From the NCBI RefSeq assembly GCF_003967355.1, contig NZ_BIFH01000029.1:62001-126000 (forward strand): DNA of 64,000 nucleotides, read 5' to 3'. The notes below the pieces were generated by a model. It was not told where the DNA came from. It was given only the letters and a program-made list of their open reading frames with translations, and ran no database searches. Shown piece after piece: positions 1,123 to 57,629 of the stretch; positions within the stretch are counted from its first letter, which is position 1, and every line of letters begins with the position of its first letter. A program made the translations under genes and the position numbers. The stretch comes from Embleya hyalina. Its GTDB lineage: Bacteria; Actinomycetota; Actinomycetes; Streptomycetales; Streptomycetaceae.

Positions 1123-2343
1123 TCACATATGCCGCGAATCCTCCGGGGTGCTCGCCGGCGTCGCCTCCTCCACCGGCGCCGTCTCCCCGCGCCCCGCCGC
1201 GCAGTACAGCGCGACCACCACGCCGAGCGCCGCGGCCCCGAGCAGGATGAGCCGATAGTCCACCACGACCAGCAGACCCGCCACGCCGAGCAGGGCGAAC
1301 GCGGTGGGCGCGAACATGATCGTCCCGGCCGTCGCCGCGACCCGGCCGACCAGATGCGCCGGCGTCTCCCGCTGCAACACGGTCATCGCCGCCACGTGCA
1401 CCGCCGGCAGCCCGAACCCGTTCAGCACACTGCCGGTAGCCACCGCGGGCAACCACGGCAGCACCCGCAGCCCCACCCCGATCGCGAACAGCACCAGGCC
1501 GAGCACCGCGAACCCCTTCGCGCCCAGCCGCCGGATCAGCGCGCCCGCGGCCAGCCCGGCCGCCACCGAACCCGCGCCCTGGGCCATGTACAGGACCCCG
1601 GCGAACGCGGGCGAGCGGCCGAGCCCCTCGTCGACCACGGCGTACACCGCCCCGCCGCTGATCCCCGACACCACCATCGCCAGCCCGCCGGCGACCACCA
1701 GGCGGCGCAGCGGACGGTGCGCCCACAGGTGGCGCACCCCTTCCGAGGTCTCCGCGACCCACCCGGTCGCCGTGCGTTCCCGCACCGGCTGTTCGAAGCG
1801 CATCAGCGTGAACACCCCCGCCGCGAGCACGAACGTGCCCGCGTCGAGCAGCGCGACGGTGTGTCCGCCCGACCACGCGAACAGGCCCGCGCCCGCGAGC
1901 GGGGCGATCAGTTTCATGCCCTCGGAGGCGCTGAGCCGCAGCCCGTTCAGATCGCCCAGGATGCCCGGCGCCACCGCCGCGGAGAGCGCGGTCGACTCCC
2001 CCGCGTCGATCAGCACGAAGCCGAAGCCGTAGCCGAGCATCACCGCGAACAGGATCCACACCTGCGCCTCGGAACGCACGGTGAGGGTGGCGGTGAGCAG
2101 TACGGCGAGCATCGTGTTGACCACCACGAGCAGCCGTTTGGCCGGCCATCGGTCCGCGAGCGCGCCGAGCACCGGGCCGAGCAGGGTCGGCGCGAACACG
2201 CCGAGCGCCATCAGTGCGGCGATGCTGTCCGATCCGGTCAGCGACTTGGCCCAGACCCCCGCGACCAGGGTCATCGCGCTGCTGCCGAAACCGGAGATCA
2301 CCACCCCGCTCAGATACAGGCCCGCGTTGCGGTCCCGGAGCAC
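1123..2343 (-). CDS. MFS transporter (drug-efflux type)
   Basis: The protein is about 406 residues with roughly 12 hydrophobic segments spread evenly. It begins 'VLRDRNAGLYLSG', the usual short cytosolic lead into helix 1, and carries 'LGALADRWPAKRLL' in the loop between helices 2 and 3, which is the family motif A (G-x-x-x-D-R). It most resembles actinobacterial MFS proteins annotated as macrolide or multidrug exporters. I chose GTG at 2343 because GGAGTGGGG lies just upstream; another GTG at 2364 would add seven residues. The gene is divergent from the thioesterase gene, with a short shared promoter space. Confidence 0.85.
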   Translation of the reverse strand: MLRDRNAGLYLSGVVISGFGSSAMTLVAGVWAKSLTGSDSIAALMALGVFAPTLLGPVLGALADRWPAKRLLVVVNTMLAVLLTATLTVRSEAQVWILFAVMLGYGFGFVLIDAGESTALSAAVAPGILGDLNGLRLSASEGMKLIAPLAGAGLFAWSGGHTVALLDAGTFVLAAGVFTLMRFEQPVRERTATGWVAETSEGVRHLWAHRPLRRLVVAGGLAMVVSGISGGAVYAVVDEGLGRSPAFAGVLYMAQGAGSVAAGLAAGALIRRLGAKGFAVLGLVLFAIGVGLRVLPWLPAVATGSVLNGFGLPAVHVAAMTVLQRETPAHLVGRVAATAGTIMFAPTAFALLGVAGLLVVVDYRLILLGAAALGVVVALYCAAGRGETAPVEEATPASTPEDSRHM

Positions 2344-2421
2344 TTTTACCCCACTCCACGCCACGCCTTCACCACGCCCCTCGTCGTCGGTGTCGCGGCC
2401 GTCATTGCTCTACTTGCAGCC

Positions 2422-3384
2422 ATGAGCAGCGCCGTCAGCCGATTCGTCGCAGAAGTTGAGCCCACCAGACTCAGGCCCGAGGGGGTCGAGCGTAGTGGAC
2501 CGGGGGGCACCGAAGTTGAGCCTTCCGCACTCAATCCCGAAAAACTTGAGCCCAGCGGACTCAAGTTCGACCTTTTCGAGGGGAAAAGTCCCGATCCGGA
2601 CGCGCTGCGGGTGTTCGGCGGTTGGCTCGTCGCCCAAGCCCTGGCCGCCGCCGGGGCCACCGTCGACGCGGACCGGGTGCCGCATTCGCTGCACACCTCG
2701 TTCCTGCGGCCCGCCGACGCGACGCTGCCGCTGACCTACCGGGTCACCCGGACCCTCCAGGGACGCACGCTGAGCCACCGTCGGGTCGACGTGCTCCAGG
2801 GCGACAGGATCGTCGTACACCTGGTCGCGTCCTTCCGGGTGACCCGCCCCGAGAGCCCCTTCGACCACGCTCCGAGCGCCCCCGCCGTGCCCGCCCCGGA
2901 CACGCTGCCCACCCTGGAGCGGCTCGTGGACACGCTGCCCGGTCCGCTGCGTCGACCGGGCCTGGTCCGGTACAACCCGATCGACATGCGCTTCGTCGAC
3001 CCGCCGACCTGGGCGGACGAGACGTTCGCCGCCCGCCCGCCGCACAACGCGCTGTGGTGTCGCACCGACGGCGAACTCCCGGACGCCCCGCTGCTGCACG
3101 CGTGCGCCGTCGCCTACGCGACCGACCTGACCTTCCTCGACGCGCTGGTGCTGCCGCACGCGGACACCCTGGCCGGGCGCTGGATGCCGCGGGCCAGCCT
3201 GGACCACACGATCCGCTTCCACCGCCCGTTCCGCGCCGACCGATGGTGGTTGTTCGACCAGGAGGGCATCACGCTGCACGGCGCGCACGGCACGGCGCAC
3301 GGTCGACTGTTCGACGCGGCGGGAAAGCTGTTTGCGACGGTCGGTCAGGAGGCACTGTTCGGCGAGCCGGTCGAACACCGGTAG
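2422..3384 (+). CDS. tesB: Acyl-CoA thioesterase II (TesB family) with an N-terminal decapeptide repeat
   Basis: This 320-residue double-hotdog enzyme should hydrolyse acyl-CoA to free acid and CoA. The family's catalytic Asp, Thr and Gln are recognisable as D235 ('ATDLTFL'), T263 ('SLDHTIRFHRP') and Q309 ('TVGQEAL'). The usual 'RVFGGQ' is RVFGGW here (W68). The conserved core begins near residue 50, later than in typical TesB proteins. The extra residues 12-51 are four ten-residue units of the type 'VEPSALNPEK'. No ATG, GTG, TTG or CTG codon occurs in frame between 2425 and the conserved core, so the start must be ATG 2422 or further upstream, and the repeats are translated. Codons in this stretch are AT-richer than in the rest of the gene. 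Confidence 0.85.
   Translation: MSSAVSRFVAEVEPTRLRPEGVERSGPGGTEVEPSALNPEKLEPSGLKFDLFEGKSPDPDALRVFGGWLVAQALAAAGATVDADRVPHSLHTSFLRPADATLPLTYRVTRTLQGRTLSHRRVDVLQGDRIVVHLVASFRVTRPESPFDHAPSAPAVPAPDTLPTLERLVDTLPGPLRRPGLVRYNPIDMRFVDPPTWADETFAARPPHNALWCRTDGELPDAPLLHACAVAYATDLTFLDALVLPHADTLAGRWMPRASLDHTIRFHRPFRADRWWLFDQEGITLHGAHGTAHGRLFDAAGKLFATVGQEALFGEPVEHR
2455..2574. repeat. Four 30-bp tandem repeats with HAIR-like inverted repeats
   Basis: Units start at 2455, 2485, 2515 and 2545. Units 1, 3 and 4 each contain a 21-base inverted repeat: GTTGAGC-N7-ACTCAGG (2455-2475), GTTGAGC-N7-ACTCAAT (2515-2535) and CTTGAGC-N7-ACTCAAG (2545-2565). Unit 2 is degenerate. The last copy differs by one base from the published HspR operator (HAIR, CTTGAGT-N7-ACTCAAG). 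The 30-base period is a whole number of codons and close to three DNA helical turns. The repeats lie inside the start of the thioesterase gene and about 110 bases upstream of the divergent MFS gene. Confidence 0.75.
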
Positions 3385-3426: not shown

Positions 3427-3813
3427 ATGTCGCAGGTCGGATTGCAGGTCGGAAAGGTCTCGCTCAACGTCAGCGACCAGGACGCGGCCAAACGATTCTG
3501 GGTCGAGAAGATGGGCTTCGAGGAGGTCCTCGACACCCCCATGGGCGAGGCCGGCAGCCCGCGCTGGATCGAGGTTCGCGCCCCGGGCGACGGCATCACG
3601 CTGATCCTGTTCAGCCAGCGCTTCGACATGGAGAAGGTCGGCAGCCTGAACAACGTCCTGTTCACCTGCGACGACCTGCGACGCGCCTACACCGAGCTGA
3701 GCGCGAGGGGCATCGACTTCCCGGACAAGCCCGCGCAGCAGGAATGGGGTTGGTGGGCCACCTTCCGCGACAACGAGGGCAACTTCTACGGCCTGACCCA
3801 GCGCAACCCCTGA
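3427..3813 (+). CDS. VOC family protein (glyoxalase/dioxygenase fold)
   Basis: This 128-residue protein starts at ATG 3427, placed by GAGGGAG seven bases upstream. It has the paired beta-alpha-beta-beta-beta modules of the vicinal oxygen chelate family: 'KVSLNVSDQDAAKRFWVEKMGF' opens module one and 'NNVLFTCDDLRRAYTELSARGIDF' opens module two, ending in 'FRDNEGNFYGL'. That last motif carries the Glu that often binds metal. Proteins like this are commonly annotated as glyoxalase or bleomycin-resistance-like, but the substrate cannot be read from sequence. It follows the thioesterase by 42 bases on the same strand. Confidence 0.88.
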   Translation: MSQVGLQVGKVSLNVSDQDAAKRFWVEKMGFEEVLDTPMGEAGSPRWIEVRAPGDGITLILFSQRFDMEKVGSLNNVLFTCDDLRRAYTELSARGIDFPDKPAQQEWGWWATFRDNEGNFYGLTQRNP

Positions 3814-36091: not shown

Positions 36092-36221
36092 GTCGCCTCG
36101 GGGGAACGAATCGGCCCGGGGGAACGATTCGGCCCGGTCCGCGGTTGATCCTGAACCAGAGCAACACCGAACCGCGGCGGTGGCGACCCGATCGCCCCGC
36201 GAGGAACAAGGAGTGGGCGTC

Positions 36222-57441: not shown

Positions 57442-57551
57442 CGTCGTACTCCTCGTCCGGCGCGGCGGGCGACACCCCTTGCGTGCGCCCGATCGTCCCC
57501 TGCCTACCACGCGGACCTTCCCCGGCGCGCGGACCGCCGCGCGCGCCGCGA

Positions 57552-57629
57552 TCGTGCGCCTCGATCACGCGCTTCGGTCACGCGCTTCGGTCACGTGCCC
57601 CGGATCCGCGCCTCGGTCACGGCGCGCTT
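57552..57629. repeat. 13-bp tandem repeats between divergent genes
   Basis: Units start at 57552, 57565, 57578, 57591, 57604 and 57617. Two are identical (TCACGCGCTTCGG at 57565 and 57578) and the others drift. Consensus TCACGCGCYTCGG. They fill part of the 345-base gap between the UBP zinc-finger gene and the SDR gene. Confidence 0.7.

What the first reader, a model, noticed from the sequence alone, without database searches (positions are those of the whole stretch)
2455..2574. Translated 30-bp repeats that also form HspR (HAIR)-like operators
Three of four 30-bp units contain the frame TTGAGC-N7-ACTCA, and the last is one base from the HspR operator CTTGAGT-N7-ACTCAAG. The period keeps sites on one helix face. 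Yet no start codon lies in frame between 2425 and the conserved TesB core, so the same DNA encodes the decapeptides 'VEPTRLRPEG' to 'LEPSGLKFDL' (residues 12-51). Codons here are AT-richer than in the rest of the gene. This may be an operator array embedded in a coding region that also stretches the thioesterase N-terminus, or a coding repeat that only mimics HAIR.
Basis: partly seen in the sequence, partly recalled or inferred. Interest (0 to 1): 0.7.

Follow-up and report, generated by a model that had tools for sequence, protein, structure and literature searches.

The report
Heat-shock operators inside thioesterase gene start
In soil bacteria of the genus Embleya, the DNA that codes for the start of a fatty-acyl thioesterase also carries the recognition sequence of the heat-shock repressor HspR, and in two species this site appears to have been copied in tandem, which made the enzyme thirty amino acids longer.

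Summary
Units 3 and 4 match the published minimal HspR operator, TTGAGY-N7-ACTCAA, exactly; unit 1 misses by one base; unit 2 is decayed. In the four Embleya genomes held, TTGAGY-N7-RCTCAA occurs 18 times: 8 upstream of dnaK, 4 upstream of clpB, 6 in this tesB start. Two other Embleya carry one unit, in a 290-291-residue TesB that aligns from its first residue with a solved thioesterase II, so ATG 2422 is the likely start and the array is 30 extra codons. Over 8 units (two decayed ones dropped) 0 of 11 arm columns vary against 15 of 19 others. Recoding the same protein with host codons gave two or more sites in 0 of 200,000 draws. In 22 of 26 TesB paralogs from other genera the same codons lie one or two bases from the motif, so the enzyme's conserved start may have been the operator's cradle. 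Most likely HspR binds here and represses tesB and/or the divergent MFS gene, 57 bp away. Binding and heat response are untested. The "one helix face" claim is weak: 30 bp is 2.86 turns.

The parts
2422..3384 (+). tesB, acyl-CoA thioesterase II, 320 aa, start ATG 2422
   Evidence: Pfam Acyl_CoA_thio 4.3e-24, 4HBT_3C, 4HBT_3; the one-unit ortholog of L007 aligns from residue 1 to 4qfw residue 1
2455..2574 (+). array of four 30-bp units, codons 12-51
   Evidence: not listed by Tandem Repeats Finder
2456..2474 (.). HAIR in unit 1, TTGAGC-CCACCAG-ACTCAG, one mismatch to TTGAGY-N7-ACTCAA
2485..2514 (.). unit 2, decayed HAIR (5 mismatches); its first 21 bases are identical in G004
2516..2534 (.). 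HAIR in unit 3, exact match to the published minimal HspR operator
2546..2564 (.). HAIR in unit 4, exact match to the published minimal HspR operator
2365..2421 (.). 57-bp region between the divergent start codons; same length in the four Embleya; promoters not identified
1123..2364 (-). divergent MFS transporter (start GTG 2364); candidate second target; HAIR 1 begins 92 bp from its start codon
   Evidence: Pfam MFS_1 2.1e-20; divergent neighbour in the four Embleya
3427..3813 (+). glyoxalase/VOC-fold gene downstream of tesB, kept in the four Embleya

Best explanation
Codons 12-51 of tesB contain three HspR operators (HAIRs) and one decayed copy. An HspR dimer, with DnaK as its partner (recalled for Streptomyces, from no call), is expected to sit on them in unstressed cells and hold down transcription from the short region shared by tesB and the divergent MFS gene: as an obstacle just inside tesB, and/or as a repressor bound just upstream of the MFS promoter. 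Heat would release it, as at dnaK, clpB and lon. Ancestrally one HAIR overlapped codons 12-18 of an ordinary TesB; in the lineage of the window and of G004 it was duplicated in frame (30 bp is ten codons), which added sites and, as a by-product, 30 residues between the TesB N-terminus and its conserved core. Shown: sites, location, open frame, unit number in four species, arm conservation, unusual codons. Inferred: HspR as binder, repression, which gene is the target, duplication as the route, and the benefit of more copies.
For: All 18 exact TTGAGY-N7-RCTCAA sites in the four Embleya genomes held lie at dnaK, clpB or tesB. The own genome's HspR passes the NCBIfam HspR cut-off (144.6 against 105 bits); each genome has one close ortholog (92-100% to that query), and the next MerR-like matches are far weaker, best 3.6e-7 at 44% over 63 residues. 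Units 3 and 4 (window and G004) and the single unit of both relatives match the published minimal operator exactly. Arms vary in 0 of 11 columns against 15 of 19 others over 8 units, decayed unit 2 of both species dropped (p 5e-5); with all 10 units it is 4 of 11 against 18 of 19 (p 0.001). Arm bases use rare codons: GTT 0.019, CTT 0.011, AGA 0.004, GCA 0.027, GGA 0.042; recoding null 0 of 200,000 with two or more sites. In 24 of 26 sampled loci of other Streptomycetaceae the same pattern lies by dnaK, clpB or lon, so it is a specific HspR mark.
Against: No binding, expression or heat data. No sigma-70-like promoter was found at 2340-2600, so the geometry is unproven. The reversed-pattern control is as frequent as the pattern (4 against 5; 93 against 19 with one mismatch). 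Units are related by descent and so not independent. Window against G004 alone gives 0 of 42 arm changes against 42 of 843 outside the array, p 0.26. Same-residue codons are not more often identical in the first 70 alignment columns (20 of 33) than later (104 of 180). Only four Embleya genomes were available. Tandem Repeats Finder does not list the array. An HspR site in a coding region has been seen apparently without regulation, in H. pylori speA (PMC6102357, passages).
Confidence: 0.66

Rival explanations
1. Coding mimic: the conserved TesB start (LEQIELN-type) happens to resemble HAIR, and the array is a neutral or structural peptide repeat without HspR.
For: In 26 of 26 non-Embleya TesB loci examined the motif was found, and its DNA lies 1 (8 loci), 2 (14), 3 (2) or 4 (2) mismatches from TTGAGY-N7-RCTCAA in the same register. 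The array keeps frame.
Against: None of those 26 is an exact match. Embleya has exact matches, built on rare codons, in all four genomes held. Recoding null: 0 of 200,000 with two or more sites. Spacers and linkers drift between units while arms do not. All exact sites outside tesB in these genomes lie at dnaK or clpB.
Confidence: 0.14
2. HspR binds here, but the regulated gene is only the divergent MFS transporter; the sites fall in tesB because the spacing to the MFS promoter puts them there.
For: HAIR 1 begins 92 bp upstream of the MFS start codon, in the range of dnaK (95 and 43) and clpB (132) in this genome. MFS-tesB order and the 57-bp gap are kept in the four Embleya.
Against: The extra units lie away from the MFS gene, with the best sites farthest from it (units 3 and 4, 152-200 bp, from the coordinates). 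No MFS promoter was found.
Confidence: 0.3
3. HspR binds but does nothing for transcription (a bystander or decoy site), as reported for the intragenic speA site of H. pylori.
For: Precedent in PMC6102357 (passages read).
Against: The site lies beside a divergent start region, is present in the four Embleya genomes held and is multiplied in two, with arms held constant in all but the decayed unit 2.
Confidence: 0.1
4. Another regulator with a HAIR-like site uses the array.
For: Other MerR-like proteins exist in each genome (10-16 matches per genome to the HspR query, HspR included).
Against: They are distant (best 44% over 63 residues), and the sites have the same form as the dnaK pair of the same genome.
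Confidence: 0.06

Closest known systems
HspR/HAIR operators of dnaK, clpB and lon in Streptomyces (PMC2687793, passages and section 12 read)
   Same: Exact minimal consensus TTGAGY-N7-ACTCAA; this genome carries the same form at dnaK (two sites) and clpB
   Different: The consensus there was drawn from sequences upstream of the genes; these sites lie in codons of tesB. In the passages read tesB is not named among the targets, and the word thioesterase does not occur in that paper's main text
Intragenic HspR site in H. pylori speA (PMC6102357, passages read)
   Same: HspR site inside a coding region
   Different: In the 3' part of the gene, one region, apparently without regulation; here near the start codon, repeated, beside a divergent gene
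lac operator O2 inside lacZ (recalled, no call)
   Same: Operator inside a coding sequence
   Different: Not repeated and adds no peptide repeat (recalled)
Acyl-CoA thioesterase II TesB (4qfw, 1c8u)
   Same: Family, and start position of the one-unit form
   Different: 30 extra residues before the conserved core in the window and G004

Membership tests
HspR operator (HAIR) | TTGAGY-N7-ACTCAA | tested here: met
   Units 3 and 4 and both single-unit relatives exact; unit 1 one mismatch; unit 2 five
HspR operator (HAIR) | An HspR is encoded in the genome | tested here: met
   L006:7632-8099, NCBIfam HeatShock_HspR 144.6 bits, cut-off 105; dnaK, grpE, dnaJ and clpB beside it also named by NCBIfam; one close ortholog in 4 of 4 Embleya genomes
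HspR operator (HAIR) | Same form as the genome's own dnaK and clpB sites | tested here: met
HspR operator (HAIR) | Lies upstream of, or at, a promoter | tested here: inconclusive
   92 bp from the MFS start but inside tesB; no promoter consensus found
HspR operator (HAIR) | HspR binds it | not testable with these tools
   needs gel shift or ChIP
HspR regulon | Transcript rises on heat or in an hspR mutant | not testable with these tools
   no expression data
TesB (acyl-CoA thioesterase II) | TesB profile match over cut-off | tested here: met
   PF02551, PF20789 and PF13622 over cut-off
TesB (acyl-CoA thioesterase II) | N-terminus of usual length | tested here: not met
   320 aa against 291 and 290 in L007 and L008, with a 30-column gap at the array

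The most novel reading that the evidence does not exclude
A transcription-factor operator was born inside a conserved protein motif (the TesB LEQIELN-type start is one or two bases from HAIR in 22 of 26 paralogs examined), was fixed there by rare codons, and then grew by in-frame tandem duplication, so that selection on a DNA-binding site wrote a repetitive peptide into an enzyme. HspR control thereby spread to acyl-CoA metabolism or export in Embleya.
Probability: 0.45. Interest if true: 0.65.

Novelty: new variant of a known kind. Interest (0 to 1): 0.55.

Why it matters
It would extend a very small, classical heat-shock regulon to a lipid-metabolism gene and its divergent transporter, and give a clean natural case in which a regulatory site and a protein sequence share the same bases, with one-unit and four-unit states in living relatives. 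It makes the question of how operators arise inside genes directly testable with synonymous mutations.

Tried and rejected
Structure prediction of the extended TesB from the window, L007 and L008 proteins gave mean pLDDT 30.7; nothing is drawn from it. Promoter and terminator scan of 2340-2600: none found. By eye, TACTTG (TACTAG in L007 and L008) lies 5 bases before ATG 2422 with no obvious Shine-Dalgarno sequence, which could mean a leaderless transcript; kept only as a guess. Tandem Repeats Finder does not list the array. Search for closer TesB orthologs outside Embleya: in 394 family genomes the best-scoring match outside the genus is 46% identical, and in 118 class genomes only the own genome passed 1e-72. 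Window-G004 substitution test for arms alone: not significant. The first column test had the right arm shifted by one base; it was corrected. The helix-face argument was computed and set aside. Paper searches: HspR with HAIR and Streptomyces, with thioesterase, HspR regulon, HspR intragenic, Embleya with HspR (no paper), operator within the coding region with tandem repeats and Streptomyces (no paper); in the rows listed by these six searches of open-licence PMC papers (20 of 27, 15 of 16, 15 of 28 and 8 of 8 for the first four) no title spoke of HspR and tesB.

Full report
What is there. The window lies in a 12.05-Mb genome (G000) whose relatives with this tesB include Embleya scabrispora DSM 41855 (L007) and Streptomyces sp. 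SID3343 (L008); three further genomes held are of the same genus, and I call the genus Embleya after L007. tesB runs from ATG 2422 to 3384 (Pfam Acyl_CoA_thio and both 4HBT_3 domains). Its codons 12-51 are four 30-bp units. The repeat finder groups units 1, 3 and 4; Tandem Repeats Finder lists no array; units 1, 3 and 4 share 18-20 of 30 bases pairwise and unit 2 shares 13-14 with each. Units 1, 3 and 4 carry TTGAGC-N7-ACTCA; unit 2 is decayed. A divergent MFS gene starts 57 bp from the tesB ATG, and a VOC-fold gene follows tesB; both are kept in the four Embleya genomes held. Of the next genes, the enoyl-CoA hydratase matches elsewhere on the other strand in L007 and the SDR gene has no match in that stretch.

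The motif is the HspR operator. The published minimal operator from clpB, lon and dnaK upstream sequences is TTGAGY-N7-ACTCAA (PMC2687793, section 12 read). Units 3 and 4 match it exactly, unit 1 with one mismatch, unit 2 with five. The genome encodes an HspR over the NCBIfam cut-off, next to dnaK, grpE, dnaJ and clpB, also named by NCBIfam. In the own genome TTGAGY-N7-RCTCAA has five exact sites: two that begin 95 and 43 bp before dnaK, one 132 bp before clpB, two here. With one mismatch allowed there are 19. Of the 14 extra sites one is unit 1 and one ends 33 bp before the start of lon (Pfam LON_substr_bdg; Lon_C downstream on the same strand). In the four Embleya genomes the exact pattern has 5, 5, 4 and 4 sites, 18 in all, and every one lies at dnaK, clpB or tesB. 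In a sample of 61 Streptomycetaceae genomes each has 1-5 sites; of the 26 loci laid out from non-Embleya genomes of that sample, 24 have the site next to dnaK, clpB or lon and two (L080, L101) match none of those queries. The reversed-pattern control is as common as the real pattern in Embleya (3-5 per genome) though mostly rarer in the other genomes, so the count by itself proves nothing; the locations do.

It reads as translated. The one-unit ortholog (L007) aligns from residue 1 to residue 1 of the solved thioesterase 4qfw, so ATG 2422 is the likely TesB start. After it, no in-frame ATG, GTG or TTG occurs before GTG 2611 (codon 64), inside the RVFGG core, and that codon is GTC in L007 and L008. 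The window and G004 (93% identical TesB, 320 aa) have four units; L007/G020 (291 aa) and L008/G031 (290 aa), the same two loci seen in two collections, have one. The window therefore has three more units, 90 bp, 30 codons.

It is more than a coding accident. Recoding the first 60 residues with host codon use (11 genes, 4845 codons, tesB included) gave one site in 778 of 200,000 draws and two or more in none; observed three. For G004 it was one in 98 of 50,000 and more in none, observed three. For the one-unit relatives a site appears in 464 of 200,000 (L007) and 113 of 50,000 (L008). The arm bases rest on rare codons, GTT (0.019), CTT (0.011), AGA (0.004), GCA (0.027) and GGA (0.042). GC3 is 0.625 in the array and 0.915 in the rest. 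Over 8 units, the decayed unit 2 of window and G004 dropped, 0 of 11 arm columns vary against 15 of 19 others (p 5e-5); with all 10 units 4 of 11 against 18 of 19 (p 0.001). Units are related by descent, so these p-values are guides. Two tests did not help: window against G004 has 0 of 42 arm changes, 7 of 78 in the rest of the array and 42 of 843 elsewhere (p 0.26 for arms against elsewhere), and same-residue codons are not more often identical at the gene start (20 of 33) than later (104 of 180).

Where it may have come from. Of 30 loci laid out (the best-scoring of 393 matching genomes), 26 are not Embleya. In all 26 the start motif is LE-Q/R-I-E-L/V/T-N, and its DNA in the same register is 1 (8 loci), 2 (14), 3 (2) or 4 (2) mismatches from TTGAGY-N7-RCTCAA, never zero. 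None of those 26 stretches carries a HAIR core or a match to the MFS neighbour. So an ordinary TesB start is often almost a HAIR, and one or two base changes could make it one. This would explain the position and part of the resemblance; it does not explain exact matches with rare codons in four genomes.

How it most likely works. By analogy with dnaK, clpB and lon, HspR would occupy the sites without stress and repress. Because the sites are inside tesB and 92-200 bp from the MFS start, either or both genes may be targets; no promoter consensus was found. The 30-bp period here is a multiple of three, which keeps the frame; it is 2.86 turns, so the sites are not on one face.

What is known. 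HspR regulons are small. In S. coelicolor, ChIP found dnaK, clpB, lon, SCO5639 and two stable-RNA regions (PMC2687793, passages). In H. pylori one of four HspR regions is inside a gene, speA, apparently without regulation (PMC6102357, passages). A search for Embleya with HspR found no paper. I file this as a new variant of a known kind: HspR-type operators, inside codons and multiplied. That HspR binds them remains inference.

Noticed in passing
2898-2910 and 2928-2940: A 13-bp exact repeat GGACACGCTGCCC, again 30 bp apart, inside tesB; it encodes DTLP twice in the window and not at all in G004, L007 or L008.
   Followed up: partly
2411-2421: TACTTG (TACTAG in L007 and L008) five bases before the tesB ATG with no obvious Shine-Dalgarno sequence; may be a -10 box of a leaderless transcript.
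   Followed up: partly
L013-L038: Streptomycetaceae TesB paralogs carry a near-HAIR (1-2 mismatches in 22 of 26) at the LEQIELN-type motif in the same register.
   Followed up: yes
L080 and L101, position 1501: Exact HAIR cores with no match to the dnaK, clpB or lon queries within about 1.5 kb; possible further HspR targets in other genera.
   Followed up: no
G000:C62:22173-22191 (L077): One-mismatch HAIR ending 33 bp before the lon start codon of this genome.
   Followed up: yes
L108-L117: In ten genomes of one other actinobacterial genus the dnaK upstream region carries two HAIRs 27-28 bp apart, closer than the 52 bp of the Streptomycetaceae pairs seen.
   Followed up: partly
36099-36137: 18-bp unit CGGGGGAACGAATCGGCC repeated 2.2 times, 95% matches.
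   Followed up: no
57542-57621: 13/39-bp tandem repeat, 2.1 copies of the 39-bp unit.
   Followed up: no
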